Of a stretch of 44,229 bases of DNA, positions 17,056 to 39,168 are shown one piece after another. Location of the stretch: assembly GCA_040880525.1 (NCBI GenBank), contig JBBDIG010000012.1, positions 1 through 44,229 on the forward strand, given 5' to 3'. The position numbers were made by a program, and so were the translations under genes. Positions within the stretch are counted from its first letter, which is position 1. Every line of letters starts with the position of its first letter. This DNA comes from Bacteroidia bacterium. GTDB lineage: Bacteria > Bacteroidota > Bacteroidia > CAILMK01 > JBBDIG01. The notes below the pieces were generated by a model. It ran no database searches, had not been told where the DNA came from, and saw only the letters and a list, made by a program, of their open reading frames with translations.

Positions 17056-17094
17056 AAAAAACGGGAAGCCATTTTTTAAATGTTCCCGTTTTTT
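17056..17094. terminator. Strong bidirectional intrinsic terminator
   Basis: AAAAAACGGGAA (17056-17067) is perfectly complementary to TTCCCGTTTTTT (17083-17094) over a 15-base loop. The A/T flanks give a T-tract on both strands. It ends both atoE (plus, stop 17043) and the long secretome operon (minus, ending 17123). Confidence 0.92.
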
Positions 17095-17122: not shown

Positions 17123-20100
17123 TTATTGAATTACCAGTTTCCGCATCCAAACGTCAGATCCAACCTGCACCCTGAGGAAATACATTCCTGCTGGCAAATC
17201 CCTGAAATCCAACTGGCTGCTATACCGTCCATTCATTTGTCCCATATCACTGCGGAATTCAACTTTGCCAGTTCCATCTATTAAGGTGATGACCATCCTG
17301 ACATCTTTGCTCAGTTCTGCTTCGAAGTTAAAATAGCCATCTCCCGGATTTGGATAGATCCGGAAATAATGGCCGCCTATCCGGTCTTTTACATCCGTAA
17401 TCAGGAAAGGCTGGGACAATGCAGAACATCCATTGGTATCTGTTCCCATCACGGTATAGGAGCCATTACCGCTAAGTGCAACAAAGCTGTCAGTGGCTCC
17501 GGGAATGAGGTTCCCGTCCTTGTACCACTGGTATTGTGCGAAGCTCGTTACGAAAAGGGTGTCTGACTGCTGGAATATCACGGGTGAAACGGGTGCCGGA
17601 TATTCAACGACTTCAAGCGTATCAGACCCTCCTGTACAACCTGAAACACTGGTTACGTCAACGAAATATTCGCCACTGGCCGTAGCGAGAATGGTTTGGG
17701 TTGTATCAGCATTATTCCACAAATAGGCGGAATAACCGGCTCCGGCATCCAGCCGGACGCTATCACCATCGCAAAACTGTAACGGACCACTGGCTACAAT
17801 CAATGGTTTTGGTGAAGGTTCAACCGTTACCACCACTTGCTGGCTCTCGGCACTGCAACCATTACTATCAGTTACACTAAGTGAATATGTGCCGCTTGTC
17901 CTTACAGTTATCTCTCGCAGTGAATCGGTGGTAGTCCAAGCATAGATGGCAAATGCCTTATCAGCCGATAAAACTACACTGTCACCTTCGCAAAGTTCTG
18001 TACTGCCGAGGGTATCAATTGAAACTACCGCAGCCGGATGTACAATGGCCGCAGTCCGGAAAGTATCTGTGCATCCATCAGGAGTCGCAGCCACCAATTG
18101 AACCTGGTACGATCCGGCAGCCGTGTATAAGTGAACGGGGTTTTCTGCCATTGAATTTCCCCCATCCCCAAATTCCCAGGCAAAACTGAGTGAACCAGAG
18201 GAAATTGTACTTCCATTGATAAAACGGCTGGAATCGCTTTCGCAAACGGCTGCTACCGCGAAATCAGCAACAGGGACTTCAAAAATTTTCAAAGAATCCA
18301 TGATGCTGTCAACGCATCCATCAGGCGTCACCACTATTAAAGTGGCGATGTATGTTCCGCTGGCAGCATACAAATGAGCCGGAGCAGAATCATTGCTGAA
18401 ATTCCCGTCTCCGAAGTTCCAGCCATAGCTTGCCATTGTTCCGGTGGTCTGGTTATCAAATTGGGTTGAATCCCCAAAGCAATCATCCTGGGTAACAAAG
18501 GCCGCAACTGGTTTGGGATAAACGGAAACGGAATGTGATACGCTGTCAATACATGCATTGGCTGTATTTACAATCAGCGTTACCGTGTAATTGGCAGCCG
18601 AATCATACAAATGCCGTGGATTCTGATTGGAGCCGGTGGTCCCGTCACCAAAGCGCCATTGATGAGATGCAATAGCACCATTGCTGCTGTCAGTGAAAAT
18701 CATGCTATCTCCTTCGCATACATTTACAAAGGAAAACCTGGCAACGGGCGATTCAAATACATCTGTTCCTTTTACAATGCTGTCCTTACAACCATCATTT
18801 GTAGTTACCGTAAGCTCCACATTATAATTACCATCGGATCCATACAAATGATTCGGATCCTGAGCCGTGGATGAGGAATTGTCTCCAAAGTCCCAGCTAT
18901 AGCCTGCAATGCTCCCGGAACTCGCATCGCTGAATTCTGTGGAATCTCCGGCACATGCGCTGGTTGCGGTGAAATCGGCAACCGGGTTCGCGTATACCGC
19001 CATATTTCTGGTAACGCTGTCCTGGCAACCATTGCCCGTACTTACTACCAGCTTCACGTTATAATTACCGGCTGTACTGTAAAGGTGAGCAGGATTTTGA
19101 ATTGACGATGTGCCGTTGTCTCCGAAATTCCATGAATAGCTCGTCACATTGCTGCTGCTGGTATCTGTAAATCGCAGGCTGTCACCATCACAAACTGAAG
19201 AAGCAGAGAAACCTGCGGTAGGTTTTGCGTATATTGTTACCGGCTTGCTGATGCTGTCCTTGCAGCCATTGCTGTTTTCCACAATGAGCCATGCATTATA
19301 GGATCCGCTTGCCGAATAAAGGTGCTTTGGATCAGATGCTGACGAGGTGCTGTTATCTCCAAAGCGCCACAAATAATTCGAAATTCCACCGGTTGAAGAA
19401 TTGGTAAATACGGTGGAATCTCCTTCGCAGACTGTTGAAACACTAAAGTTGGAAGAAGGCAGGGAATAGACCTGAACATTCTGCGAAAAGCTGTCAACAC
19501 AACCATTAGCGGTTTGAACGATCAGTTTCACCGCATAGCTGCCAGTAGTTGTGTACAAATGACGAGGCGCAGCAGAGGATGAAGTGTTATTATCCCCAAA
19601 ATCCCATGAGTAGCTGCTAATGCTGCCTGTGGTTGTATTGCTGAAAATAGTAGAGTCTCCGAGGCAGGAATTTGCTGCAGAAAATCCTGCCACAGGATTA
19701 GCATACACAGAAACATTTTTAGTAATGCTATCTGAACAGGCATTGGAATTCGTAACCACCAACTTCACATTGTAGTTGCCGCTGCCGGAATACAGATGTT
19801 TTGGGCTTTGAGCGACAGAAGAATTATTATTTCCAAAGTCCCATTGATACCCGCTGATGCTGCCGCTGCTTGTGTTCGTAAAACTGACGCTATCTCCATC
19901 GCAAACATTGCCGGCAGAGAAGTTTGCAGTGGGAACAGGATATACTGTTAGGTTCGTGCTGCCGCTATCTGTGCATCCGTTAGCGGTAGTAACCCAAAGC
20001 CATACGTTGTAGCTGCCACTATAGCTGTACAGGTGTTTAGGCGACTGCGCTGAAGAAGTGGTTGTATCGCCAAAATCCCAGAAATAATTGCTGATATTGC

Positions 20101-22774
20101 CGGTTCCGCTGTCTATAAATGCCGCAGAATCTCCAAGGCATATATTACTGACCGTAGGCAATGCGTCAGGATTGGGGAATACACCTACATTTTTTATTAT
20201 ACTGTCAGCGCATGAATGAGCATTGCTGACAACAAGTTTTGCGTTGTAGCTTCCCGTATCGGCATATAAATGCACTGGGTTCTGGTTTCCGGAAAATGTA
20301 TTGTCACCAAAATTCCAGGCAAAACTGCTTATGCTGCCGATACTTGTACTTGTAAAACTCATACTGTCGCCATCACAAACTCCGGCTGCTGTGAAATCAG
20401 CTACGGGCGTTGGATGCACGGTGAGATTTATAACGGTGCTATCCTGACATCCATTTGCGGTAGCCACTACCAGTTTCACATCATACGTTCCGCTGTCCGC
20501 ATAAAGATGACTAGGTGCCTGTAAACTTGAAGTAGTACTGTCACCGAAATTCCAGGCATAGCTCACGATGCTGCCGGTACTGTTATTTGTAAACTTCACG
20601 GAGTCGCCATCACAAACCGGATCTGCAAAAACAGAAGCCTGGGGCATCTCGAAAACAGATATACTTTTTGTTGTGCTGTCTGCACAGCCGTTCGTGGTGT
20701 TCACCACCAGCTTTACCTGGAAAGTTCCGGTAGTGTCGTACAGATGCTTCGGATGCTGCACTGTGGATGAGGCAGCATCACCAAATGACCAATTGTAGCC
20801 AGTTACCGGTCCGGTGCTTTGATCAGTAAAATTCGCACTGTCGCCATCACAAACATTGGCCGTAACGAAATCTGCAACGGGCATTGGATATACAGAAATC
20901 ACTTTCCCGCTGCTATCAGCGCAACCATTAGTTGTGGTTGCCAGCAGTTGAACGAGATAGCTCCCTGTATCCGCATAGAGATGCTGCGGATGCTGAGCTG
21001 ATGATGAATCTCCATCTCCGAAAGTCCAGCTATATGTGCTGGACGGGCCACTTGTCGTATTGGTAAAGTTTACACTGTCTCCATCACACACACTGGCTGC
21101 CGTAAAATCAGCGGATGGTGCCGCATAAACTGTGATTTGCGAAGTAGTTGAGTCGCTTTTCCCTTTGGCAGAAGTAGCCACCAGGGTTACATCGTAGGTT
21201 CCAGCAGTTGGATATTTGTGTTTGAAGCTGCCGGGCGGAGAAGTGAAAGTCGCAGAGGAATCATCACCGAAATCATACTTCCATGTGGCAATGCTTCCGA
21301 ACGAAATAGAAGAAGTATCAGTAAATTGAAGAGAATCGCTGACACATCCGTTGTTTAGCGTAAACCCGGGGACCGGAGGAATAGAATCGGTGTTGATAAG
21401 CAGGACTTCCTCGTCTCCTGCAGTTTTCATCGCCTCCTGGTTGCCGGTGTTATCCGTAGCGAGCGTGAAGAAGTCATAAGTATTCCCAAGGGTTCCCTGA
21501 AAAATTACAAATGTGTCTTCTATATTTTTCAAGTAATTCTGGAAAGGTCCTTTGTTCTCTGCATAATAGAGTGCATAATTTCTGATTCCAGAACCCCCGG
21601 GATCATCTTGCCCGCTCCACGAAATTACTATCCGGCTGGAATCAATAATGGGAGCAAGGGAAGAATCTATACTACTTGCCGGTGCTACCGCATCTATAAG
21701 ATTATAAATTTCGGGTGTATTGATTTGGGAATTCTCATCAAATACAATTTCGGCATAGGCATTAATGCTGTCTCCGGTTACAGTAGAAGATTTCGCCATA
21801 ACGGTAAACTCCACGAAACCCTCGCCATCGTGCGTGGCTGTATCATTTACCGGTAAAACGCCTTTAAATGGGTCATTTGGTGCTAAGCCAGTCAAAGGGT
21901 CAATGGCCTGGAATATCCAGAACGCTTCATTTCTTGATACATCTATTCCTGCCACTACGTCCACATATACTCCTAATGAATCACGCACATCCAGCCGCTG
22001 TGAATAGTATGTACTATTGGGAGGAACGTTAAAAACCATATTTGCGAATCCAAAATCGGCCAGTCGCAGGGAGAACCTGTTTACTTTATCAGGGAACGGA
22101 TGCCTGATCTCTACCTTTTGGGCCGGGGCAGTTGCAAAATCAGGATCATTTTCAAATCGAATTTTGTAAGGATGCACATCAAATTTAGAGATCCATTTTT
22201 GCGGTCCAAAGCCTTCAGGACCGATAATATCATTGGGGTCGCGGGAGCAAACAATGGGTATAAAAACGACTGTTACGCTTCTCGTTTTTGAGCAGTTATT
22301 GGTATCAGTTACCGTACAGGAATAAGTACCTGAACCACTTACGGTGCGGCTTCCTCCGGGCCATGAATAGGTATACGGTGGAGAACCGCCACTTGCCGAG
22401 GCAGAGAGGGTAATGCTCGGTGGACCATCCTGAATACAAAATTCAATATTTCCACCTCCTGAAACGCTTATGCTGAGCGGTGGCGGGCCGTCAATTACCA
22501 CTTCTTCTGTGCCAGTACAATTATTCGAATCTGTAACCGTAACGGTATAAGCGCCTTTGGCAAGGTTTGTCGCGGTTTGCCCGGCTTGGCCGTTCGACCA
22601 GCTATATTGAAAAGGCGGGGTGCCATTCTGCACGTTCGTTACCGTTGCAGAACCGTTCTCCCCGCAACCTGTGGCATCGGTTTTATCAATTGTAATTTGT
22701 GCCTGTGCAATTCCCACCCACCCTGTAAGAATGGAGATAAGATTTATCAGGAATATTTTGTACCAGATTTTCAT
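17123..22774 (-). CDS. Secreted PKD-array protein with a T9SS sorting domain
   Basis: A 1,883-residue secreted or surface protein. Order: signal peptide (1-26); two SprB-like Ig repeats (~28-175; PPFQYSWSNG, YTVTVTDSNNCTG); a domain starting DPNDIIGPEGFGPQKW (~180-370); an FN3-like domain (~375-460); 14 PKD repeats (~467-1578); three Ig-like domains (~1580-1800); and a T9SS type A C-terminal sorting domain (last ~80 residues; FRIYPNPGDGYFNFEAE, LPAGMYFLRVQVGSDVWMRK). Thirteen of the PKD repeats are about 79 residues long with a fixed pattern (CDGDS, W-FGD, HLY, NGC-DS), each holding two Cys that could form a disulfide. PKD/Ig stalks usually serve adhesion or cell-surface display; no catalytic domain is visible. 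It is the last gene of the four-gene unit, 31 bases after the helical protein, and the only one with a recognisable sorting domain. Confidence 0.93.
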   Translation of the reverse strand: MKIWYKIFLINLISILTGWVGIAQAQITIDKTDATGCGENGSATVTNVQNGTPPFQYSWSNGQAGQTATNLAKGAYTVTVTDSNNCTGTEEVVIDGPPPLSISVSGGGNIEFCIQDGPPSITLSASASGGSPPYTYSWPGGSRTVSGSGTYSCTVTDTNNCSKTRSVTVVFIPIVCSRDPNDIIGPEGFGPQKWISKFDVHPYKIRFENDPDFATAPAQKVEIRHPFPDKVNRFSLRLADFGFANMVFNVPPNSTYYSQRLDVRDSLGVYVDVVAGIDVSRNEAFWIFQAIDPLTGLAPNDPFKGVLPVNDTATHDGEGFVEFTVMAKSSTVTGDSINAYAEIVFDENSQINTPEIYNLIDAVAPASSIDSSLAPIIDSSRIVISWSGQDDPGGSGIRNYALYYAENKGPFQNYLKNIEDTFVIFQGTLGNTYDFFTLATDNTGNQEAMKTAGDEEVLLINTDSIPPVPGFTLNNGCVSDSLQFTDTSSISFGSIATWKYDFGDDSSATFTSPPGSFKHKYPTAGTYDVTLVATSAKGKSDSTTSQITVYAAPSADFTAASVCDGDSVNFTNTTSGPSSTYSWTFGDGDSSSAQHPQHLYADTGSYLVQLLATTTNGCADSSGKVISVYPMPVADFVTANVCDGDSANFTDQSTGPVTGYNWSFGDAASSTVQHPKHLYDTTGTFQVKLVVNTTNGCADSTTKSISVFEMPQASVFADPVCDGDSVKFTNNSTGSIVSYAWNFGDSTTSSLQAPSHLYADSGTYDVKLVVATANGCQDSTVINLTVHPTPVADFTAAGVCDGDSMSFTSTSIGSISSFAWNFGDNTFSGNQNPVHLYADTGSYNAKLVVSNAHSCADSIIKNVGVFPNPDALPTVSNICLGDSAAFIDSGTGNISNYFWDFGDTTTSSAQSPKHLYSYSGSYNVWLWVTTANGCTDSGSTNLTVYPVPTANFSAGNVCDGDSVSFTNTSSGSISGYQWDFGNNNSSVAQSPKHLYSGSGNYNVKLVVTNSNACSDSITKNVSVYANPVAGFSAANSCLGDSTIFSNTTTGSISSYSWDFGDNNTSSSAAPRHLYTTTGSYAVKLIVQTANGCVDSFSQNVQVYSLPSSNFSVSTVCEGDSTVFTNSSTGGISNYLWRFGDNSTSSASDPKHLYSASGSYNAWLIVENSNGCKDSISKPVTIYAKPTAGFSASSVCDGDSLRFTDTSSSNVTSYSWNFGDNGTSSIQNPAHLYSTAGNYNVKLVVSTGNGCQDSVTRNMAVYANPVADFTATSACAGDSTEFSDASSGSIAGYSWDFGDNSSSTAQDPNHLYGSDGNYNVELTVTTNDGCKDSIVKGTDVFESPVARFSFVNVCEGDSMIFTDSSNGAIASHQWRFGDGTTGSNQNPRHLYDSAANYTVTLIVNTANACIDSVSHSVSVYPKPVAAFVTQDDCFGDSTQFDNQTTGTMASYGWNFGDGNFSNDSAPAHLYAASGTYIATLIVVTPDGCVDSIMDSLKIFEVPVADFAVAAVCESDSSRFINGSTISSGSLSFAWEFGDGGNSMAENPVHLYTAAGSYQVQLVAATPDGCTDTFRTAAIVHPAAVVSIDTLGSTELCEGDSVVLSADKAFAIYAWTTTDSLREITVRTSGTYSLSVTDSNGCSAESQQVVVTVEPSPKPLIVASGPLQFCDGDSVRLDAGAGYSAYLWNNADTTQTILATASGEYFVDVTSVSGCTGGSDTLEVVEYPAPVSPVIFQQSDTLFVTSFAQYQWYKDGNLIPGATDSFVALSGNGSYTVMGTDTNGCSALSQPFLITDVKDRIGGHYFRIYPNPGDGYFNFEAELSKDVRMVITLIDGTGKVEFRSDMGQMNGRYSSQLDFRDLPAGMYFLRVQVGSDVWMRKLVIQ
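18040..21125 (-). repeat. 13-unit tandem array of ~237-base PKD repeats
   Basis: Within the PKD-array gene, a unit of about 237 bases (79 codons) recurs 13 times head to tail. One visible phase marker is the stretch encoding CDGDS (seen on the plus strand as GTCGCCATCACAAAC and variants near 20365, 20607 and 20843, and a variant near 21080), spaced 236-242 bases apart. Copies differ at many positions, so this is an old, diverged array rather than a recent expansion. A 14th, more divergent PKD repeat lies just upstream (21125-21365). Confidence 0.85.
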
Positions 22775-22805
22775 GGCTAAATTATTTAAGCCTGTTCAGG
22801 AGTTT

Positions 22806-23732
22806 TCATTTCCGTATGGCGTATTCACTTTGTTGATCCATCCATTGACGGGCAGTTTCGATATCTTCCTTTGTGTAGCCAAAACCCTTTTGCTGAACAG
22901 GAAAATTTTCAAGGCTTTGAGCCAGGAGCTCCATAGCATATTGAGCGTGAAGATTACCCGGTGATCCTTCGCGGGTTGTAGGCAGGCGCGCATCCGTATC
23001 TAAGATTGATTCGAGATATTTGATCGACCCCGGTTGCCGGATAAATGCAACATCCCTCGAAACACGGGAAACCCGGATTACCTCATCCGGCTCTGTAGGA
23101 GCCTGCTGCAATACTTTTTCAATGGCATCAGTTTCTCCAAGCCGTGCCAGGGCGAGGAATGCATGCCAGGTAAACGTGCCGTACCATTTGCCGACACGGC
23201 CCACGGGATCCAGCCGGGCGCTGTCAGCAATTATTTCCCGAAGTCTCTTCTTCTCCCCGGACATCTGTGCGACACCAGCCAGCAAGATTGCTTCCCGCTT
23301 TGGTGTTTCCTCCTCAAGTAAATCCGAAATATTCTTTTTGGCGGTCCTGCTAAAATCTTCGGACTCGAACTGTTGCAGGGCCTTAGCCGCTTGTTGCCAT
23401 ATTGCCGCAAGAGGATCACTGAGTTTCTCCGTAAGCCGCTCCACAACTTCCTCTTTTACATTCTCTGATGGATATTCCCTGGCTGTTTTTATTTCCAGCA
23501 TAGTCTTAATGAGCCTCACATTATCATCCGGATCACCTGCATATTCTTGTAAGGCATTCAATATTTCAGCGGGAGGCGATTTTAATATTTCAACATCATC
23601 CACGGTCATGCTTTTCTTGCCCCGGTTCAATTCCATCAACTCATCAATTTGTTGAGAAACACTCTGGGCTCCGGCAGATTTGCTCAGAAAAAAGAGGATA
23701 CTGAAAAGTAAAATATTTCGTATCATTTTCAT
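22806..23732 (-). CDS. Exported HEAT-like helical repeat protein
   Basis: A 308-residue protein with a signal peptide (MKMIRNILLFSILFFLSKSA, GAQ). The mature part is almost entirely alpha-helical and is built of paired helices in the style of HEAT/armadillo repeats: VKEEVVERLTEKLSDPLAAI with WQQAAKALQQFESED, then AILLAGVAQMSGEKKRLREI, then TFTWHAFLALARLGETDAIE, and LHAQYAMELLAQSLENFPVQ. Such folds normally act as protein-binding scaffolds; an exported one is unusual. No catalytic residues are seen. It is the third gene of the four-gene unit, 14 bases after the protease and 31 before the PKD-array gene, so a role with those proteins is likely but inferred. The start could also be Met3. Confidence 0.85.
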   Translation of the reverse strand: MKMIRNILLFSILFFLSKSAGAQSVSQQIDELMELNRGKKSMTVDDVEILKSPPAEILNALQEYAGDPDDNVRLIKTMLEIKTAREYPSENVKEEVVERLTEKLSDPLAAIWQQAAKALQQFESEDFSRTAKKNISDLLEEETPKREAILLAGVAQMSGEKKRLREIIADSARLDPVGRVGKWYGTFTWHAFLALARLGETDAIEKVLQQAPTEPDEVIRVSRVSRDVAFIRQPGSIKYLESILDTDARLPTTREGSPGNLHAQYAMELLAQSLENFPVQQKGFGYTKEDIETARQWMDQQSEYAIRK

Positions 23733-23746
23733 ATCAGAATATTAGG

Positions 23747-25273
23747 TTAAGGATTAATTAAATCCCATTGAAATTTCCTTAATTTAATTTTGGAACAATA
23801 GTCCATTAAATTATCCGGGTCCTGGTAATTTGAGGCCCCATCGCTTGCACCGCAACCACTTGTCCCTGGCCCCGGATGTCTCAATCCAAACAATCCGTGG
23901 CCCGCCTCATGGGCACCCGTTTGTTCCACAGTATTGGGCGCGCTATGGTTTGCTACATTTATAAAAGCATAGCGCTGATTAAAGCCCATTTGGCCTAAAG
24001 CTGTATTTCCAAATTTCGGATTGTCTATCAAAAAGAAGTTTGCATCATACGTATCGTCTTTGCAACTATCTCTTATGAGCTGTGCTTCAGCGGTTGACAT
24101 AAAAGCGCCATCATCATCATACATTCCATCTCTGTCAAGATCGAAATTGATGGTTTTAGCGGGCAAACGTGTGATCGTAAAATCATGTACCGCCTGGTTA
24201 AAAATATCATCATTGAGCGCAGCTAGGATAACAGCATCGGAATAATTAGAACTTATAATATCTGTATTATTGGCCGCTGTATTACAAATCCCATCTGCAC
24301 CTGTATAGATGCTGTCACCGGTAATTACATCGTCCCCCGATTTTGGATGTGTGTCGCGGAAATTATTGGGACCCGACCTCACACAAAGTTGGTTGGGCTG
24401 CCCCTGGTTGACCGGTATCACCTGTGCATCGTTCCCTGAAGCTGTGGAATTGCAAACGCCATCAGCCCCGGTAGTAATGGTCTTACCCACCACCTGATCA
24501 TCACCTGAAGCTGTGCTGTTCAGGATAGTATCGGTTCCGTTGTTGATGCAGACCTGATTGGGTTTTCCATTACCTACAGGAATTACCTGAATGTCATCAT
24601 TATCTTCATGCACCAGGCGTATCATAATGGTTTTTGATTGCTTCTCATATACTGCCACTTCGCATTTATGAAGGTTATCTCCACTTGCGCTGCCGCAGTT
24701 TCCTTCTATATCCGCATCCGCACCTTTGGCGACACCGGTGATAGTTACCGTCTGATTGTTGGCTCCCATTTGGGCCGGTGAAACCGTTGCCTTTGCCACA
24801 ACCGAACTCTTAAAATAGACCCCTTCAAATCCGTTGGGAGGCACCACCTTAGCCTTTACCGGATCATCTTCGCCCTTCTCTACTGATTTCCATGGAAATT
24901 TTGTCCCTCCCTTATTTGTCCAATCATCAAATCCATAGTCTTGTGAATTGTCTTCAAGGAAATACAAGCTGTCCATTACAATTACTTTTACCTCATCCGT
25001 GCTTTTGAAGCTAAAATTTTCTCCGGTTACCGTGAGTGTATAGGTCAATGTTGAATCAGGATCGGCCGTTGGCTTAGGTGCAGTTGGGTTGTCCAGGCCG
25101 TGAATGGGCGACCATGAATAACACCAGTCGTTATTCGTATTTTTACCAATAACCACCGTTCCTGTTTTACAAGTAACGGTATCAGGTCCTGCATCAGCCT
25201 GGGCAATTGCCATAGCAGGCAAGAGCAGTAAGACCGCCAGGATAGATATGAACCATATCCGCATATATTTCAT
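23747..25273 (-). CDS. Secreted zinc metalloprotease (zincin)
   Basis: A 508-residue secreted protease. Signal peptide (MKYMRIWFISILAVLLLLPA, MAIAQ), an Ig-like N-terminal region (~25-100) with paired Cys, a middle region with tandem ~58-residue units (from ~225; GDD, TGADGVCN, then GDD, TGADGICN), and a C-terminal catalytic domain. The zinc site is HEAGHGLFGLRH (455-466) with a likely Met-turn LMDY near 490, and GASDGASNYQDPDNLMDYCS around it. The third histidine is one residue further along than in the textbook metzincin motif; the same spacing occurs in other Bacteroidota secreted zincins. No T9SS sorting domain is seen at its C-terminus. It is the second gene of the unit, 11 bases after the giant protein gene. 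The start could also be Met4. Confidence 0.9.
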   Translation of the reverse strand: MKYMRIWFISILAVLLLLPAMAIAQADAGPDTVTCKTGTVVIGKNTNNDWCYSWSPIHGLDNPTAPKPTADPDSTLTYTLTVTGENFSFKSTDEVKVIVMDSLYFLEDNSQDYGFDDWTNKGGTKFPWKSVEKGEDDPVKAKVVPPNGFEGVYFKSSVVAKATVSPAQMGANNQTVTITGVAKGADADIEGNCGSASGDNLHKCEVAVYEKQSKTIMIRLVHEDNDDIQVIPVGNGKPNQVCINNGTDTILNSTASGDDQVVGKTITTGADGVCNSTASGNDAQVIPVNQGQPNQLCVRSGPNNFRDTHPKSGDDVITGDSIYTGADGICNTAANNTDIISSNYSDAVILAALNDDIFNQAVHDFTITRLPAKTINFDLDRDGMYDDDGAFMSTAEAQLIRDSCKDDTYDANFFLIDNPKFGNTALGQMGFNQRYAFINVANHSAPNTVEQTGAHEAGHGLFGLRHPGPGTSGCGASDGASNYQDPDNLMDYCSKIKLRKFQWDLINP

Positions 25274-25284
25274 AGCCTCTTAGT

Positions 25285-31200: not shown

Positions 31201-34200
31201 AATTTTTAATCCCGTTTCAGGATTTGAGGTATTGTAACCCTCAGCCAGCACTCCGTAGTTGCCGTTTTCAAAATAGTTGTTCTCTATTACCACGTTTTTG
31301 GCCCGGCCGGAATATCCCATGTGGATCAACATGGGATAATAATAGTAATAAGTAGCGCTATTCCCGGTAATATGGTTATTGCTGAAAGAAACATTTTCAC
31401 AACGGTCAGTCATCCATATCACACGGCCGTAGTGAGACCCGGTAGCTTTTATCCCCATATTACGGAATGTTACATACCTGGCGCCTTTAAGATACACCAC
31501 ATAATTTTTGCTGCTATTTCCGGAAAATGAGAGCGTCACCAGGCTGCTGTCAAGATTTTCCGATTCAAAGGTGATCGTATTGGAAGAAGATGCCCCTGGT
31601 ACTGAACCGATAAGGATTTGCTCATTATAGGTTCCGTTGCGCACTTTGAAAGTTACGGCTCCGGAAACGCCTCCATTGTTGAGTGCGTCTACAGCATCCG
31701 TAAATGTAGGAAAATCGGGATTCGTGCCGCCAATGCTATAAATCCCTGAGAGGGCCGGGTATACGTTTAACCATTCAATTGTATCATTAAACCTGCTCCC
31801 ATCGGTTTGTCCGTTAGGCTGAGAAGTCCAGGCCACAATGTTTACTGCGCTCGCAACAGAAAAGCTTACCTGTCCCAGATATACCAGCGCGGAATCTTCC
31901 GGAAGCAATGTGTCATTCCAGTTAACGGTAGTCTGACCGGAGCCATTAAGCGTCCAGTTGATCGTGACCTGCGTCAGGCTATCAGAACCATAATTTTTCA
32001 GCTTCACCCATACATTATGCACCCCGGCCATAAAGCCGGCTGCCGGAGAGTCTACGGCTGTAAGTCCGGCATCATTTGGAAAAGTAGTGAATTCGTCAGC
32101 GCCAATATCCGGAGCAATGCTGTCCCGGAGTTCCCCATCAATATCCTCAGACACAGAAGAAAGGAATGTTCCTGCTCCATTCAGAATTGATTCCCGCACG
32201 TGGAGATCCGTAGCAGAAACAAATTGAGGATTTATGGAAAGGGAACTGCCATCCATTCCCGTCCCCGATCGCAGGCTGCTGAGGTTGCTATAAGTGGTGG
32301 GTGACCAATACCCCAACGTGGAACCGGAAGTATAAAAATTATTAAAATCTGAAGAAGTAACTGCAGAGGAGGAGGTAATATAAAAGGCACTACCCCCCGA
32401 ACTATTGGCAAATATGTTATTCTTCAGCCGTATGTTACTGCCAGCGGCAATATAGGAATACCCCGAATTGCTATTTCCCTGCGCATTAAAACTGTTATGA
32501 TAAACATCGATGTAGGATGAACTGTACAGGTAAAGCGGGTAAGGCCAGGAGGAAGTCCCACAGGACACGAAATTATTGGCGACTAAGGCACTTTTAGATG
32601 ACGTACCTGATGATGAGTAAATCAAAATTCCGTACCGGATACTGGTATTACCGTTGACATAGTTCTTCAGGATCCGGATGTCGTACTGGCAACTCGTGAG
32701 GTAAATTCCATTAAAGGATGAGTAAAAGGTTTTTGGCTGAATCTTATTTTCTGCAATCAACGGAGAGTGTCCATAGGCGACATAAATGCCCATATAATAC
32801 TGGTCTGAGAACAGGTTGTTGACAACCTGATTATCCCGCTGGTAAAGGCTGGAGTTACCACTGAATTGCACACCGATGCTTCCATAGCGAATAAGGTTAT
32901 TTCGGAAAATGATGATAGAATCAGAAGTTCCATCAATATGTGCCGCGATCATATTGGAAGAAGTGGTGGAAAGATCCACACCTGTAATCCGGTTTTGCAA
33001 AAATGACAGATGATGGGAATTATTCGTGGTATAAATAACCTTCCCATAGGTGTTACCGGTAGCTATCAATGTCATCTCCCTGAAAGTGATATATGCAGAA
33101 TTATCAAATAGCACCGTATAATTTGAATCGGAATGGGAAGCCGAATAAGTTAGCTCCACCAGAGTGCTGTCGCTGTTCTCAGATTGGAATATCACACTAC
33201 GTGTATCTGAAGCGCCTGGAATATTGCCAAACCGGAGTTGCTCGTTATAGGAGCCATCCCGGACATTAAAAATTACCGGCCCGGCCACACCACCATAAGT
33301 TAGTGTGGTGACGGCATCCCCGAAGGTCGCAAAGTCAGGACTTACGCCACCGATGGTATAAGTGCCGCTCAGCGCAGCATAAAGATCTTTCACTTCCAAC
33401 GTATCATTCGTATTTATGCTGTCAATTCCGCCATTGGGAGATGAAGACCATAATTTAATATCATATCCAACTCCCGGAAGAAAATTGAAATACCCAATGC
33501 CAGTAGATATGGTATCTCCGGAATTCAGCGAGCCATGCCATTTAGTTGAAGGTTGTGCCACCCCATTCACGGTCCAGTTCAAGGTTACGCTGTCAAGATC
33601 ATTCAGGCCATTGTTCAGCAGGCGAACAAATACCTGATGAGAATCTGCCAAAAACGGGATAGCCGGAAAGACCAGAGCAGGAACGGCCGCATCCTGAGGA
33701 CTGGCATTGAATTCATCGGCTCCAATGTCGGGCGCTGTGTTGCTGCGTGATTGTCCGTCAATATCTATTGGTACACCGGAAAACGGTATTCCGGCATTAT
33801 TGAATGCCACATTAAATGTATGAAGATCCGTTTCGGATATAAATCCGGGAGATACCGAGATGGAATGGCTGTCAAGGCCTGTTGTCGAAACCCAATCAGC
33901 AAGAGTAGCGCGATTCCCGCTGTAGTAGGCCAGCACAGACCCGGTTGTATAAATGTTGTTGTAATCAGAATAATCCAGAGAAAATAAGGAAGCAAGATAA
34001 AAAGCTACTCCTCCCCCGCTCTGTGCCAATATGTTGTTTTGCACCGTGTTTTCTGAGCCATAATAAATACTCAGCGCTCTGTTGGTTGATGTGCTCTCAG
34101 CCGTAATGTGAATGGAATTATGCACAATGTCAACATTTTCCAGATAGTAGAGAAGCATTCCTTCCACATCAGGGTTGCCACTACCATGAATAAAATTGTT

Positions 34201-37200
34201 GGCGATCAGCCCTCGCTTTGCCCCGGTAGTTTCATGATCGTACATATAAATGCCATACCGGCCCTCTCCTACCCCAAGTTTATTTCCGCTGATAATAATC
34301 TCTTCCTTCGTATCTTCTGTTAGTATTCCGAAGTAAGAGCTGTAATTACCGGTCGGCATTCCAATCACATTATCGGATATTTCCAGGTCCGTCTGATATT
34401 CCGCATAAATGCCACAATAATTTTGATTCCTCAAAATATTTCCCTTCACTAAATTATTCATTCCCAGAAAAGAAGATCCTCCATAAAAATAAATACCCCT
34501 TGAGCCACCTTCTATTAGGTTATTCATGATTTCGTTTCCACTGTTGGAAGCGCCATAATCCAGCAGAATGGGGCTGTAGGCATACGAGGTTGAGGTGGTG
34601 GTTGGCGCCAGAATGATACAGTTCGTAATAATGTTATGCTCAGCACGATCATTCAACCAGAATACCCGCGAATAACCTCCGCTGGTAGCTTCCAGTGTCA
34701 TGTTTTTAAATCTTATATAATCTGCGCCATTAAGATATACCACGAAGCTTTCTGAGAAATTGTTACTACTATAATATAATCTCACAGCAGTGCTATCGCC
34801 AGTCTGGCTTTGGAAAGTAATGGTATGGGTGGCTGAAGCACCGGCAATTTCGCTAAGTGTTATTTGTTCGTTGTAATTACTATCACGCACATTGAATACA
34901 ACCCATCCGTAAACGCCTCCCTGTTCCAATGCCGTAGCGGCTGCTGTAAAATTGGCAAAGTCCGGATTTGTGCCCCCGATCGTATAGGTGCCGGAAAGGC
35001 CGGGAAAAATATTGTTGAGTGAAAAAGTATCATTTGCATTCAGAGGATCCTGGATGCCGTTCGGTAAAAACGTCCATGCAATAATGTCAACTCCGGAACC
35101 GAGCGTGAAAGAACGATTTCCCAGCAATACATGAACAGTATCTCCTGTGGCGAGTTGTCCCTGCCAGGTGACCGGAGATTGCGCCACTCCGTTCATGGTC
35201 CAGCCGACTGACACACTGTCCAGCGTATCGAGCCCTGCATTGAGAACAATGGCTTTTACCGGTTGATTTCCCGGTGAAAAAGGAATATCCGGTGAATTGA
35301 AACCTGCCAATGCACAATCCAGCGCGGGAAGCGGGAACTCATCAGCCCCTATATCAGGTGCCAGGCTATCGCGAAGTTCACCATCAATATCCGTTGTAAT
35401 TCTGGATATGGGAAGCGCTACATCACGCAGCAGGATGTTGGTGGTATGGAGGTCAGTAGCTGATACGAAAAGCGGGTCTGCTTCTATCGAATTCGAATCA
35501 AGGCCGGTGCCTGCCTGCCACCCCGACAAACTTGAATAACTAGAAGAACTATGCTCTCCTAATGATGGACCTGTAACATTAAAATTATTATAATCCGATC
35601 TGTTTATTTGTGTACCGCCTTCAAAAGTTACAGCCATCGAACCATCAGTGCATGAAATAATATTGTTCAAAATATTAAGTTCATCGCAGGCATAAAATTC
35701 TAACGCTGAATAATTTGTGGAATTAACAGCATGTAAAATTGAGTTAAAGTAAACATCCAGATATTCGCAATATTCTGCGGTAATAGCATTTCCATAGGAA
35801 AATCCAATATGAATAAAATTATTGGCAATAGTGGCCGGGCTGGATAAATTGGAATAGCTTTCATAGGCATAAATTGCATAACCCGAATTATTCTGTTTAA
35901 AGTCATTATTTAAAATACTAAATGACGGACAGTAATAGATATAAACGCCATAAAAAGTGGTAGTGGTCCCCGGCAGAATAACATTATTCCTGATAGAAGG
36001 CCCGTCAAGATACTCCAAATAGATACCGTAGCGCACCGGGCTTTCGATCAGGCAATGGCTTATATCTATACCGGGATTTTCAGAACCATAATCACCATAA
36101 AGCATGATCGCTGAACTTCCGTTTTTAAGGTGGCATTGAGATAAAACAAGGTTGCTGTCTACCGCCTCGTAATCGCTCCAGAAAATTGCATTTATATCGG
36201 ATGTGGAAGTAGAAGTAGTGCCTTCCATCACACAATTGGAGAACTGAATATCGCCATTTACATCCTCTAATGCGACAACCCGGGCATAACTAAATGACAG
36301 CGATTTAAATGAGATTTGATGAAACCGAATCCACTGAGCTTCGCGCAGCAGCACCACATAATTAGCTGAAGAGGAAGTTGAAAACTCCATTTTCACCAGG
36401 CTGCTGTCTCCGGATTCTGAACGAAAAGTAACGGTGTTAGTGGCTGACACACCCGGAATCCTTCCAATTTCGATTTGCTCGGTGTAAGTTCCGTTACGTA
36501 CATCAAAAATTACAGGCCCGGCCACACCTCCCGAATGCAGGGCGGAAACAGCCGAAGTAAAATCCGGGAAATCTGGTGTAGTACCTCCGATCGTATAGGT
36601 TCCGCTTAGTGACGCTACCAGGATTTTTGAGATGGTATCATTGTAATTCAGCGTATCAGAGATACCATTCGGGGCAAAAGTCCAGGCAACAATAGTATCC
36701 GCTTTTCCTGCTCCAAATGAGTTGGTTCCGAGCATTACGGAATCTACTTTCCCGGATGGCAGGTTGCCCGTCCAGGAATATGTGGTTTGTGGCGTACCAT
36801 TGATTTCCCAGGCTATTGAATCCGTCAGCAAGGTGTCTGTTCCGCCATTCACCAGGGAAACCCAAATGGCGTTGCTGCCGGGATTAAAAGGCGTAACAGG
36901 CGAATCCACTGCTATCAATCCTGCATCCACCGGAGGAAGGATAAATTCATCAGCGCCTATATCTGGTGCCAGCGTATCGCGCGAATCTCCATCTATATCA
37001 TGGATAATACCTGCTACCGGTATCCCGGAATGTTTAAGGACAGGCTGCCTTACATGGAGATCCCCAGCGCTGACATAAAGCGGATCAACATTGAAAGAAT
37101 TGGAATCCATACCTGTAGCCGCCATCCAATCTTTCAAATTGTTTAAATCTCCATCCCAATAAAAATCTGCGGTTCCAGAGCCAAAATAATTGTTATGATC

Positions 37201-39168
37201 GGATAAAGAAACAGAATTCGTATCCGCCATATATGAACTATATCCGCCACCACGATTCAGGAAGTTGTTGTTGAGTATTCGTAAATTACTGGAGTAGTCA
37301 ACCCGGAAGGCATAATTTTCCGGGTATGATGATGCGATGCTGACGTTGTTGTAAAAAATATCCGCAAATGCAGAAGAATAAAGATAAATCCCATAAACCC
37401 GATTCGTAGCCCCCGGATGTCCTGCACTGAAAAAATTATTCGTCACATGGCCCCGATTCACTGAATCGCCAGCGCAATAACCGAGATAGACAGCATATTC
37501 AAGATTGTCAATCGCTACCCGATTATTTGCCACCATAAATCCATCACGTACATAATACATGTAAATACCATATCCATAAGGATAGGTAGTGGCGGAAGTA
37601 ATGACATTATTAAGTACCTGGGATCCCGACTGGTAAGTAAGGTAAACTCCCATGTAGTATTGATCTGAAAACAGATTATTAATGATACGCGTACCGGCCT
37701 CACGATCAATGGAATTGTTTCCTGAGCAATACAATCCATAGGCCCCATCAATAAATATATTATTACTGAAGGTTAAGGAATCATTTTTATAGCTTGAAGA
37801 AAAAACGAGGGCATAATGGGTAGATGTTGAGGTAACTGAAGTACCTGAGATAATGCAATTTGATAAACTAATGTTATGGCTGACATTTCTGATATCCACC
37901 ACACGGCCGTAGCTGCTGCCGGTCGCGCCCAGGCTGATGCCATGAAAACTTAAATGGCTCGCACCATCTATCAGCAGGGTCCAGTTGCTATCGCTTCTGG
38001 AGGAAGGATAATTCAGGATACACGCGGTGCTGTCGCCAGACGCGGATTTGAACCTGATGAAGTTAGAAGCTGAGGCACCATCAATTTTTCCAATGTTAAC
38101 CTGCTCCGAATAGGTGCCATCCCGTACATCAAAAACTACCGGACCACAAACACCGGCAAATGCCAGATCCGCGACTGCCGCAGAAAATGTTGGATAATCA
38201 GGTGTTGTCCCACCGATGGTATAGGTTCCGGAAAGCCCCGGCATTCGCACTACTTTCAGCGTGTCATTCCGGTTTATCGTATCGGTCCGGTTATTTGGGC
38301 CGGTTGTCCATACCTTGATCGCTGTGGGAATTCCTGCACTGAACATCCTCGAACCCAGCATCACCTGTACTGAATTCTGACCAGCCCCACCAAATGTATC
38401 CAGCGTACCTGTAAATAAGACCGGGGTTTGAAGCGTATCATTAATTGACCAGTTCACGGTAACTGTATCAATTTGGTTTATGCCATAATTCCTAATCTCT
38501 GCTACAATATTATGCGTACCCGGGCAAAATTGAGCGGGCGAATCAATCGCTGAAATCCCCGCATCATCGGGTGCGGTGGCCGCAAAGAACTTCACGGTCA
38601 TGGTTTGTGTAGGAGCGTTGCAAGAAGTAGTTCCGTACCCACCCCAATTGTGATTTCCAATTGCCGGACGTAAAATAGGACCAACATCGCAATAACATTC
38701 TCTCGCCTGGTTATTTGCATTCAGTTCCACGGCATCCAAAGATGATGACCCTGAACCGCAGCCTGAACCGCAGCCCGTGCCCACTGTCCAATCTACACCA
38801 TTACAAGTGATGGTAACGTCCGTTCCATTCCTGAGTGCAGCCGCTATCTGGCGTACTTCTGCTGCGGAGCTACATGTAACTCCGGTGGTGTTAATTGATC
38901 CGGAAAAGGTTACAGATAAAAAGTTATGTGCGCTGGTATCAAGCGAACTACGAAAGGTTTTCCAGTTGTCATATTGTGAAGAGCCTGCACAATAGGATGC
39001 CGAGTTAACAAATGTCTCACTGTATTCAAAATTCTGAGCATTGGCGGGATGAGCGTATATCGTAATGCAACCCACCGTTAGAATCACAACTGTTTTGCAA
39101 AAACTTTTTAACCGGTTTCGATGTCCGGCACCAAATAGCTTATGCCTCACGCGAGTAGAAAAACTCAT
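25285..39168 (-). CDS. Giant 4,627-residue beta-helix / CARDB surface protein
   Basis: A secreted protein with a long-n-region signal peptide (hydrophobic core ~25-40, cleavage near ANAQ). Order: a Cys-rich N-terminal domain (~46-205; GCGSGCGSG, ECYCDVG); a CARDB-like domain; five large modules of about 540 residues, each starting LSGTYTIGG or similar (near residues 311, 852, 1388, 1931 and 2471) and holding a right-handed parallel beta-helix that ends in DIGADEF, followed by a ~110-residue CARDB-like domain; three Ig-like domains (~3010-3235; VCYGNTVRL, ICYGDSVQL, LCPGDTAIL); an FN3-like domain (~3240-3320); eight CARDB repeats (~3324-4326); and three last domains (~4326-4627), one TIG-like. 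Beta-helix plus CARDB organisation suggests a long adhesin or polysaccharide-binding stalk. No catalytic site and no T9SS sorting domain were found. First gene of the four-gene unit. Confidence 0.92.
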   Translation of the reverse strand: MSFSTRVRHKLFGAGHRNRLKSFCKTVVILTVGCITIYAHPANAQNFEYSETFVNSASYCAGSSQYDNWKTFRSSLDTSAHNFLSVTFSGSINTTGVTCSSAAEVRQIAAALRNGTDVTITCNGVDWTVGTGCGSGCGSGSSSLDAVELNANNQARECYCDVGPILRPAIGNHNWGGYGTTSCNAPTQTMTVKFFAATAPDDAGISAIDSPAQFCPGTHNIVAEIRNYGINQIDTVTVNWSINDTLQTPVLFTGTLDTFGGAGQNSVQVMLGSRMFSAGIPTAIKVWTTGPNNRTDTINRNDTLKVVRMPGLSGTYTIGGTTPDYPTFSAAVADLAFAGVCGPVVFDVRDGTYSEQVNIGKIDGASASNFIRFKSASGDSTACILNYPSSRSDSNWTLLIDGASHLSFHGISLGATGSSYGRVVDIRNVSHNISLSNCIISGTSVTSTSTHYALVFSSSYKNDSLTFSNNIFIDGAYGLYCSGNNSIDREAGTRIINNLFSDQYYMGVYLTYQSGSQVLNNVITSATTYPYGYGIYMYYVRDGFMVANNRVAIDNLEYAVYLGYCAGDSVNRGHVTNNFFSAGHPGATNRVYGIYLYSSAFADIFYNNVSIASSYPENYAFRVDYSSNLRILNNNFLNRGGGYSSYMADTNSVSLSDHNNYFGSGTADFYWDGDLNNLKDWMAATGMDSNSFNVDPLYVSAGDLHVRQPVLKHSGIPVAGIIHDIDGDSRDTLAPDIGADEFILPPVDAGLIAVDSPVTPFNPGSNAIWVSLVNGGTDTLLTDSIAWEINGTPQTTYSWTGNLPSGKVDSVMLGTNSFGAGKADTIVAWTFAPNGISDTLNYNDTISKILVASLSGTYTIGGTTPDFPDFTSAVSALHSGGVAGPVIFDVRNGTYTEQIEIGRIPGVSATNTVTFRSESGDSSLVKMEFSTSSSANYVVLLREAQWIRFHQISFKSLSFSYARVVALEDVNGDIQFSNCVMEGTTSTSTSDINAIFWSDYEAVDSNLVLSQCHLKNGSSAIMLYGDYGSENPGIDISHCLIESPVRYGIYLEYLDGPSIRNNVILPGTTTTFYGVYIYYCPSFSILNNDFKQNNSGYAIYAYESYSNLSSPATIANNFIHIGFSYGNAITAEYCEYLDVYFNSILHAVNSTNYSALEFYACDELNILNNIISCTDGSMAVTFEGGTQINRSDYNNFNVTGPSLGEHSSSSYSSLSGWQAGTGLDSNSIEADPLFVSATDLHTTNILLRDVALPISRITTDIDGELRDSLAPDIGADEFPLPALDCALAGFNSPDIPFSPGNQPVKAIVLNAGLDTLDSVSVGWTMNGVAQSPVTWQGQLATGDTVHVLLGNRSFTLGSGVDIIAWTFLPNGIQDPLNANDTFSLNNIFPGLSGTYTIGGTNPDFANFTAAATALEQGGVYGWVVFNVRDSNYNEQITLSEIAGASATHTITFQSQTGDSTAVRLYYSSNNFSESFVVYLNGADYIRFKNMTLEATSGGYSRVFWLNDRAEHNIITNCIILAPTTTSTSYAYSPILLDYGASNSGNEIMNNLIEGGSRGIYFYGGSSFLGMNNLVKGNILRNQNYCGIYAEYQTDLEISDNVIGMPTGNYSSYFGILTEDTKEEIIISGNKLGVGEGRYGIYMYDHETTGAKRGLIANNFIHGSGNPDVEGMLLYYLENVDIVHNSIHITAESTSTNRALSIYYGSENTVQNNILAQSGGGVAFYLASLFSLDYSDYNNIYTTGSVLAYYSGNRATLADWVSTTGLDSHSISVSPGFISETDLHTFNVAFNNAGIPFSGVPIDIDGQSRSNTAPDIGADEFNASPQDAAVPALVFPAIPFLADSHQVFVRLLNNGLNDLDSVTLNWTVNGVAQPSTKWHGSLNSGDTISTGIGYFNFLPGVGYDIKLWSSSPNGGIDSINTNDTLEVKDLYAALSGTYTIGGVSPDFATFGDAVTTLTYGGVAGPVIFNVRDGSYNEQLRFGNIPGASDTRSVIFQSENSDSTLVELTYSASHSDSNYTVLFDNSAYITFREMTLIATGNTYGKVIYTTNNSHHLSFLQNRITGVDLSTTSSNMIAAHIDGTSDSIIIFRNNLIRYGSIGVQFSGNSSLYQRDNQVVNNLFSDQYYMGIYVAYGHSPLIAENKIQPKTFYSSFNGIYLTSCQYDIRILKNYVNGNTSIRYGILIYSSSGTSSKSALVANNFVSCGTSSWPYPLYLYSSSYIDVYHNSFNAQGNSNSGYSYIAAGSNIRLKNNIFANSSGGSAFYITSSSAVTSSDFNNFYTSGSTLGYWSPTTYSNLSSLRSGTGMDGSSLSINPQFVSATDLHVRESILNGAGTFLSSVSEDIDGELRDSIAPDIGADEFTTFPNDAGLTAVDSPAAGFMAGVHNVWVKLKNYGSDSLTQVTINWTLNGSGQTTVNWNDTLLPEDSALVYLGQVSFSVASAVNIVAWTSQPNGQTDGSRFNDTIEWLNVYPALSGIYSIGGTNPDFPTFTDAVDALNNGGVSGAVTFKVRNGTYNEQILIGSVPGASSSNTITFESENLDSSLVTLSFSGNSSKNYVVYLKGARYVTFRNMGIKATGSHYGRVIWMTDRCENVSFSNNHITGNSATYYYYYPMLIHMGYSGRAKNVVIENNYFENGNYGVLAEGYNTSNPETGLKIEDNIFDDQFRYGLYLSFQASPSIQGNQMHTARGYQGHYNIYIYYASGTPVIAANRIDNESGNIGIYLYAFSGNFSNRMRLVNNFISVAGSSYPRALLISNCNYVNIYFNSLNIYGTDSLNSRALEVTSSSSIYAQNNNLVNSAGAYAVYASSNVFSVSDYNNIYSTGSSLAYYNSGNVGDLASWQSATGKDANSLSIDPFYVSATNLHARQTGLNEMATTISGITTDVDGDLRSTSTPDIGADEFNPVSKDVGIASVINPVTGCGHSSAEKVTVRIKNYGFQPQTNFDVTYIKDNGTPITQSIGTDTIQPGESFDFTFNTTVDIGSQTTYNFIFYTSLTNDSIPANDTLKQAVTNYAPFNPSVIADTSVCYGNTVRLYATGGSSYYWSIGSGSSAIYVSPADTTSYSVTITNAQGCKETDTVRVDVLPVPVAPVITVNGNDTICYGDSVQLSTSATGNLLWNTNATTSSIYAKTSGGYWVRTYNQHGCFTTSATQAVKMLPLPSVTNSAAAGLCPGDTAILTVNDGQSYSWSTGQTTRSISVNPPNDSSFTVAVTNAIGCVYHDTVDVDVLFLNQPGPVSQMIPVDSASEITLPVSFSWFPGTDATKYDLYLWPDSAVQPGTPLTTNINGISTVVYSGLSPGVTYEWLIVSKNTCKDSAGPSQIFTLKDLPDLIVQSVSLPSNAFSGQNVNVNWQVRNSGNGSTGSRVWYDAVYLSADSIYDPGTDSYLGSVKNFSALGKNSSYSQSFGFTLPQGISGNYYVFAVADNYSYLSEANENNNRTRSTSAMSVALTPPPDLVVDSIIVPNNVFSGQTMPITFEVQNNGIGATAGSQWYDRVYFSKDSLFNPANSDLVGTFKHTGVLLPDSSYTRTVNFQIPISDFGRHYIFITTDIHNNIYEHSSELNNTTQSDSITVILTPPPDLAVRSVSVPDSAHNLQWISVDYVVGNEGGSSPVTSWYDRVYISDTADFVPGRSILLKTNLRYGPLQPTDSYSVSSIVRIPHYLTGPYYFFVHTDFNDRIYEFLIETNNIGRSPDAMEVTNADLQVATINTPSADSSGKDILISWYNRNNGHGNLTGRSYYDAVYLSRYSSFDPDSLTYLGELFSNSNINSGDSLLRQKLVTLPNGISGTYYVFIYTDYKNAVVEASGEGNNITRSNGMSVVLSPWPDLLPVSLTLPDTTTAGNLIYIDSEIENKGSSSTASLWSDELYISADSVWNASNATRVSSNSGPAFLQPDSGYSVITPVVLSSTLAQGLYYFYLKTDSKNEIYEHTDENNNLLRSKAVFIYRYPPVDLTVTSVSGPDSANSGQLVNVQWQATNTGLARTIPNQWYDAIYLSTDTILQTSVDKYAGELVHHGFLDTGASYSTARNITIPNGLSGDYYLMLLADRHDVCDDDNRADNVGLMRDSSGNPAVINITFTPPPDLQITSADIPTVGTAGQPIKLKWTVENNGTGPTLAGTWTDRIYLSTDFSITGDPVIATRIHSGNLAVNGSYTDSVEAFLPAGVSGARVIIIVTDNGNAVYEYLNENNNEFNGPVLISQQPPSDLVISEISLPDSAIAGETINITWKVKNTGLNPASGYMTDAVYLSTDSLWDIQDELFGIRSGTINITPNAEASRSLSSKLKNIPLDNYYVLVKTDIKENIRESNDTNNLTASTDLLSVDVKQLYLNVLTPEILENNTELYYRVEVADTLEGESLLVTLKGDSVNGNNELYYRHDQMPTRVDYDESFSDPFAGNQEVVVPELQEGNGYILTYGNKPGSASQNITLHARILDFEVRSVEADKGANAGTITLLVEGSKFDPLMSLYLRKDSIKIKAAAVHYFDPTTVYATFNLKGSPTGDYDVIAQKITGDTAVLYESFEVITGTLGDLQTHLNYPSSTRANRVVALQIDFSNNGNTDLHNVQIELKSVAGAPVAFSVSGLAEEKTSLILNLQESDRLGGVLRPGYHGSIVVYAKSTKALGFILVLPNQ
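26190..29195 (-). repeat. Eight tandem CARDB repeats in the giant gene
   Basis: Eight units of about 120-130 codons begin with the pattern PPDL/V (LPDLIVQSVSLP, PPDLVVDSIIVP, PPDLAVRSVSVP and so on) and share WYDxVYLS, a hydrophobic strand, and ENNN near the end. They encode CARDB domains, a beta-sandwich fold used for adhesion. The copies are diverged in sequence but regular in length. Confidence 0.8.
30475..38240 (-). repeat. Five tandem ~1,620-base beta-helix modules in the giant gene
   Basis: The strings encoding LSGTYTIGG or LSGIYSIGG occur near 38235, 36612, 35003, 33375 and 31755, about 1,620 bases apart. Each is followed by the conserved run PDF-TF-AV-L-GGV-GPV-F-VRDGTY-EQ and ends with DIGADEF. 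The unit is unusually long for a tandem intragenic repeat. Confidence 0.85.

What the first reader, a model, noticed from the sequence alone, without database searches (positions are those of the whole stretch)
17123..39168. Four-gene, 22-kb operon for a giant stalk protein, a protease, an exported helical scaffold and a T9SS cargo
Four minus-strand genes follow each other with gaps of 11, 14 and 31 bases and end at one strong terminator. All have signal peptides. The mix is odd: a 4,627-residue beta-helix/CARDB protein, a zinc protease, a helical HEAT-like protein and a PKD-array protein. Only the last carries a recognisable T9SS sorting domain. Inference: the unit makes a surface assembly in which the giant protein is presented or processed by the protease and held by the scaffold. 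I know of no described system with this gene set.
Basis: partly seen in the sequence, partly recalled or inferred. Interest (0 to 1): 0.8.

Follow-up and report, generated by a model that had tools for sequence, protein, structure and literature searches.

The report
Split giant with swappable protease slot
A very large bacterial surface protein that is one chain in many Bacteroidota has, in one lineage, been cut into two neighbouring genes, with an exchangeable module (a different protease, or an Rhs shell, in different bacteria) between them, and only the second half keeps the known export tag, so the first half may have to leave the cell by holding on to it.

Summary
The four-gene minus-strand unit is real: gaps of 11, 14 and 31 bp, four signal peptides, one terminator, one T9SS sorting domain. 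But the four-gene set is not the conserved object. The two outer genes are halves of one ancestral giant: in 18 other Bacteroidota loci the CARDB array plus C-terminal module of the 4,627-aa protein and the DUF7619 region of the PKD/T9SS protein lie in one chain. The window and 15 other loci are split at the same domain end. Between the halves lies a variable slot: zincin gene plus HEAT gene (window only); M23 peptidase (4 loci); M4 thermolysin (5); trypsin-like domain (1); Rhs (5). Split loci form one clade in the widest tree; slot type changes at least five times along it. No other locus seen has P0002 or a full-length P0003. Best reading: a two-part T9SS surface chassis with an exchangeable, mostly proteolytic module; the CTD-less giant is probably presented through its CTD-bearing partner. 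Architecture and history are shown; re-association, export in trans and protease function are inferred. New variant of a known kind.

The parts
25285..39168 (-). P0004, giant half of the split chassis: signal peptide, five tandem Ig + right-handed beta-helix units, Ig_7-like part, CARDB array, C-terminal three-domain module; no T9SS CTD
30466..38571 (-). five tandem units of about 540 aa (CARDB-like Ig + beta-helix, each ending DIGADEF at residues 736, 1272, 1814, 2354, 2895)
   Evidence: 36-40% identical over 2,200 aa in L090-L092
26179..29190 (-). CARDB array, conserved in split and unsplit relatives
25288..26265 (-). C-terminal module (CT) of the giant; stop codon at the same domain end in the 15 other split giants; internal to the chain in unsplit relatives
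   Evidence: model pLDDT 88.9, last strand 319-322 of 326
23747..25273 (-). P0003, slot gene 1: signal peptide, Ig/SprB-like domain, two ~55-aa repeats, zincin catalytic core; no CTD
23876..23911 (-). HEAGHGLFGLRH zinc motif of P0003 (residues 455-466); LMDY Met-turn at 489
22806..23732 (-). P0002, slot gene 2: exported HEAT-repeat protein, no relative found
17123..22774 (-). P0001, tail half of the split chassis: SprB/Ig - DUF7619 - Fn3-like - PKD array - Ig - T9SS type A CTD
21374..22264 (-). DUF7619 + Fn3-like region (residues 171-467), in the same chain as the giant's CT in unsplit relatives
17129..17359 (-). Por_Secre_tail sorting domain, the only CTD in the unit
17056..17094 (.). bidirectional terminator hairpin shared with the convergent gene
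   Evidence: sequence

Best explanation
The unit encodes a surface chassis made of two polypeptides that come from one ancestral T9SS giant: a CTD-less stalk (P0004, beta-helix + CARDB) and a CTD-bearing tail (P0001, DUF7619 + PKD array). Between the halves is an exchangeable module, in most cases an extracellular protease; here it is a free-standing zincin (P0003) with an unexplained HEAT partner (P0002). All four enter the periplasm by Sec. The tail is exported and anchored or released by the T9SS through its CTD. The giant most likely docks on the tail through its last beta domain, restoring the old chain non-covalently, and reaches the surface with or through it; the protease acts at the stalk-tail junction on captured protein or on the assembly. 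Shown: the two halves, the split point, the slot variation, a T9SS translocon in the genome. Inferred: docking, export in trans, what the protease cuts, any role of P0002.
For: Same chain in unsplit relatives: CT and DUF7619 co-occur in one ORF in all 18 unsplit loci used in the tree. Split at the same residue in 16 loci. Split loci on one side of one branch, SH-aLRT 98, 33 loci, 99 for the giant half alone. The halves diverge together across 14 split loci (Mantel r 0.85, none of 5,000 permutations; shared species history alone could give much of this). Junctions after the giant are short: -29 to +62 bp in 15 of 16. Slot modules are fused to the tail in 12 loci, and Rhs is fused in two and a separate gene between the halves in three, so slot and tail have a fusion link. 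Slot contents: M23 (L144 by homology), M4 (L124, L125, L143 by sequence), trypsin-like (weak), Rhs. Slot type changes at least 5 times on the tree; the M23 loci as one clade are rejected, p 6.7e-6. T9SS translocon SprA in the own genome and in every split-locus genome tested; CTD on all complete tails but one (weak, below Pfam's cut-off, in L072, L090, L125, L130). Among 20 CTD proteins from the own genome only 3 have a peptidase domain, so repeated independent peptidases in one slot are not simply the base rate.
Against: No direct evidence that the halves bind or that the giant leaves the periplasm. The Rhs loci show the slot is not only for proteases. L129 has junctions of 372 and 411 bp; L126's tail ends without a recognised CTD. 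Support for the split clade falls to 60/84 in the careful tree with few outgroups, and the DUF-only tree needs two changes. The trypsin-like call is weak (Trypsin_2 E 0.034). P0003 was never seen fused to a chassis. The number of loci is small and several are MAG contigs.
Confidence: 0.55

Rival explanations
1. Decay product: the giant gene broke in two, the downstream half picked up a signal peptide, and the CTD-less giant is stranded; neighbouring genes are chance arrivals.
For: The giant lost its CTD, and in the same genome beta-helix giants of the same kind carry their own CTD (L157).
Against: Frames are intact in all 16 loci (about 2,900-6,600 aa where complete), split at one domain end, with conserved sequence (34-50% in CT over the split set) and short junctions; a decaying gene of this size would not stay open over such divergence.
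Confidence: 0.1
2. Two independent secreted proteins that share an operon for joint regulation: a periplasmic or vesicle-released giant and an ordinary T9SS protein with a PKD/DUF7619 tail. No physical complex.
For: Each has its own signal peptide; the giant has no CTD; a CTD-less enzyme has been found outside cells of a soil Bacteroidete, with vesicles proposed as the route (PMC6247017).
Against: Giant and tail are one chain in 18 relatives, and the tail's DUF7619 belongs to that family rather than being a random one.
Confidence: 0.25
3. Polymorphic toxin: the slot carries an antagonistic effector (Rhs, zincin, M23) delivered by the giant, like the TANFOR toxins that neighbour SprB-CTD T9SS proteins.
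For: Rhs in five split loci and in the unsplit f62 giants; relatives of the P0003 core sit inside large proteins of other families of the class, one with a C-terminal AHH nuclease; TANFOR precedent (PMC7073777).
Against: No recognisable immunity gene lies in the unit, and no toxin domain was recognised in the Rhs proteins; M4 and trypsin-like domains are more typical of digestive enzymes than of toxins (general knowledge).
Confidence: 0.2

Closest known systems
Unsplit T9SS giants with CARDB array, DUF7619 and Por_Secre_tail (e.g. L074, L054)
   Same: Same domain order and homologous CARDB, CT and DUF7619 regions
   Different: One chain with one CTD; slot holds short helical, Gly-rich, TSP3-like or Rhs sequence, and no peptidase was recognised there by eye
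TANFOR polymorphic toxins of Bacteroidetes (PMC7073777)
   Same: Large exported protein encoded beside a SprB/PKD/CTD T9SS protein; the authors propose T9SS export and note toxin domains either fused or in the adjacent gene
   Different: Different domains, toxin at the C-terminus, often with immunity gene; no ancestry in one chain is reported in the sections I read
Rhs/YD-repeat proteins and polymorphic toxins in general (PMC3482391)
   Same: Swappable effector on a conserved carrier; Rhs shells in five loci
   Different: Most slots here are proteases, the variable part is internal rather than C-terminal, no immunity genes seen
SprB and other T9SS adhesins
   Same: Giant repetitive surface proteins, SprB repeats, T9SS CTD
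   Different: CTD is on a second polypeptide here; no gliding link tested

Membership tests
T9SS type A cargo (P0001, tail) | N-terminal signal peptide and C-terminal Por_Secre_tail/TIGR04183 | tested here: met
T9SS type A cargo (P0001, tail) | T9SS translocon in the genome | tested here: met
   SprA TIGR04189, 2,549 bits, G000:C50
T9SS cargo (P0004, giant) | C-terminal CTD of type A or B | tested here: not met
   no Por_Secre_tail, TIGR04183 or CHU_C hit; C-terminus is an internal domain of relatives
Metzincin protease (P0003) | HExxHxxGxxH and Met-turn | tested here: inconclusive
   HEAGHGLFGLRH, one residue longer, with LMDY; Reprolysin_5 E 0.0027, under cut-off; same spacing in L060, L061
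HEAT-repeat protein (P0002) | HEAT_2 match over Pfam cut-off | tested here: met
   31.1 bits against 27.7
Polymorphic toxin system | variable effector on a conserved carrier | tested here: met
Polymorphic toxin system | cognate immunity gene next to the effector | tested here: inconclusive
   slot genes are followed within 31 bp by the tail; P0002 as an immunity protein is not excluded but it is exported and HEAT-like
Polymorphic toxin system | toxic activity of the effector | not testable with these tools
   needs bench work
DUF7619 isopeptide domain | Lys-Asp-Asn triad (Lys in DPNDK by position, PMC12617251) | tested here: not met
   DPNDI in the window; Ile, Leu or Met at that place in nearly all relatives, Lys only in L140/L142; my mapping of the Lys onto DPNDK is inferred from its residue number

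The most novel reading that the evidence does not exclude
The T9SS exports a CTD-less giant in trans: fission of a giant left the signal on a smaller partner, and the pair has been kept in a dozen or more genomes as a two-part carrier whose middle module is freely exchanged between unrelated proteases and Rhs shells.
Probability: 0.35. Interest if true: 0.85.

Novelty: new variant of a known kind. Interest (0 to 1): 0.6.

Why it matters
T9SS cargo is understood as carrying its own CTD. A conserved pair in which a giant of several thousand residues has lost the CTD to a neighbour makes a clear test of whether the T9SS can move or display a passenger on a partner. The slot also shows that Bacteroidota swap unrelated proteases and Rhs modules on one conserved surface chassis, a modular logic known for toxins but not, in the papers I could search, for exported proteases.

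Tried and rejected
P0003 alone against genome contigs: no relative. P0002 against 60 genomes, 4 other chassis genomes and the PDB: nothing useful. AlphaFold of P0003 as a single sequence: pLDDT 33, useless. Foldseek of the giant's CT: only generic Ig-like tandem proteins, no whole-chain match. Stop read-through or programmed frameshift joining giant and next gene: rejected, because the frame relation is 0, 1 and 2 in different loci and the next gene starts with its own signal peptide. Isopeptide bond joining the halves: the Lys is missing. Promoter scan: 20 sites found, 20.8 expected, so uninformative; one TAnnTTTG 135 bp before the giant, not taken as evidence. Literature: no paper found on this gene pair.

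Full report
What is there. The window is one whole contig (G000:C12) of a 3.8 Mb Bacteroidota genome in 60 contigs (contig length). The terminator is a palindromic hairpin shared with the convergent gene. The three junctions hold no terminator-like site on the minus strand, and the genes are alike in composition, so a single transcript is likely but not shown.

The outer genes are halves of one protein. A search of 247 genomes of the phylum with the last 298 aa of the giant found ten other genomes. Reading the regions around those hits showed that in most the giant's CARDB array and C-terminal module (CT) lie in the same ORF as the part of P0001 that holds DUF7619 and the following Fn3-like domain. 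The order is CARDB array, CT, a variable stretch, DUF7619, Fn3, sorting tail. In the same order, G006 has it in one chain (L074), while G001 and G010 have it in separate genes. A profile of CT (A2) searched over 395 genomes of the class gave 25 genomes with a match; the strongest matches were in the split form. Adding the genome-contig hits L090-L092 and order-wide searches, I have 16 split loci including the window and 18 unsplit loci used in the tree.

Split point. The giant stops within a few residues of the same place in all split loci, at the end of a complete beta domain. The AlphaFold model of this module, from 18 aligned sequences, has pLDDT 88.9 and its last strand at 319-322 of 326. 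In unsplit relatives the same domain is internal.

History. A tree of 33 loci on CARDB+CT+DUF7619 puts all 15 split loci that have both parts on one side of a branch (SH-aLRT 98); the giant half alone gives 99, the short DUF half alone needs two changes. A careful tree of 22 rows with six outgroups supports it only at 60/84, probably because long outgroup branches move. In one search the split clade lies with unsplit loci of the same class and away from those of other classes, which favours fission of a longer gene over fusion; the tree itself is unrooted, and gene transfer is not excluded.

The slot. Between CT and DUF7619 the split loci carry: P0003 + P0002 (window); an M23 peptidase at the tail's N-terminus in L072, L073, L126, L144, with an extra ~350-aa exported gene in three of these (L072, L073, L144) that are homologous to each other; thermolysin M4 with FTP propeptide in L123, L145 by Pfam and in L124, L125, L143 by clear sequence similarity; a trypsin-like domain followed by PPC in L090 (weak by Pfam); Rhs repeats fused to the tail in L127, L131 and as a separate gene between the halves in L128, L129, L130. 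Slot type needs at least five changes on the chassis tree, and the M23 loci are not one chassis clade. Unsplit giants of family f62 have Rhs in the same slot; others have helical, Gly-rich, or TSP3-like stretches. As a base rate, 3 of 20 CTD proteins sampled from the own genome have a peptidase. Four unrelated peptidase types in one slot would have a chance of roughly 0.15^4 = 5e-4 if slots were filled with random T9SS cargo; this is a crude estimate from one genome, and it leaves the Rhs loci aside.

Export. SprA is present in the own genome and in all tested split-locus genomes. About 30 ORFs with a CTD-like end were found in 793 kb of the own genome, the last few weak, so the T9SS is well used. 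Complete tails end in a CTD, except L126. The giant has none. In the same genome, two other beta-helix giants with units 32-35% identical to those of P0004 do have their own CTD (L157). This contrast makes the CTD-less giant notable: it must either depend on its tail or take another route.

The middle genes here. P0003 has an N-terminal Ig/SprB-like domain common in the phylum, two internal repeats, and a zincin core with the 12-residue motif HEAGHGLFGLRH and LMDY. The relatives of that core are in large proteins of other families of the class; one ends in an AHH nuclease. P0002 is a HEAT protein with no relative found. Neither recurs in other chassis loci, so any mechanism that needs both is specific to this lineage.

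Mechanism, with marks. Shown: halves, split point, slot variation, CTD distribution. Supported by the fusion principle: giant works with tail (fused in 18 loci); slot module works with tail (fused in 12, separate in 4). Inferred: docking by the giant's last domain; export or display through the tail; the protease acting on captured protein. Unknown: substrate, and what P0002 does.

Known work. DUF7619 is named in one paper, as a predicted isopeptide family (PMC12617251); the Lys that I map to DPNDK is not there in the window. The nearest concept is the TANFOR toxin class, exported proteins beside SprB-CTD T9SS proteins, for which T9SS export was proposed but not tested (PMC7073777). I found no description of the split pair or its slot; subscription papers could not be searched.

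Noticed in passing
39482-42763 (-): P0005: MFS-like transporter fused to HEAT repeats and a cNMP-binding domain (1,093 aa), 313 bp upstream of the giant on the same strand.
   Followed up: no
L157:1-18406 (G000:C19): Two adjacent giants (over 3,164 and 2,895 aa) in the own genome with beta-helix units like P0004, SprB and FG-GAP repeats, each with its own CTD.
   Followed up: partly
L062:5768-12364: 2,198-aa protein with a zincin core like that of P0003 and a C-terminal AHH nuclease: looks like a polymorphic toxin.
   Followed up: partly
L132, L134, L136-L139 (slots between CT and DUF7619): Collagen-like Gly-rich (GGPGGPGG) stretches and a hydrophobic glycine-rich segment in unsplit giants.
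   Followed up: no
L046-L053 (family f62): Unsplit giants with CARDB, Rhs and DUF7619 in one chain, up to 6,437 aa; in the one f62 genome tested, G152, SprA was not found, so their export route is open.
   Followed up: partly
L129:952-1326 (-): Short ORF of LPNDTRG tandem repeats between the Rhs gene and the tail.
   Followed up: no
24263-24592 (-): Two ~55-aa repeats in P0003 (QVIPV...PNQ.C...TGADG.CN) with no Pfam family.
   Followed up: no
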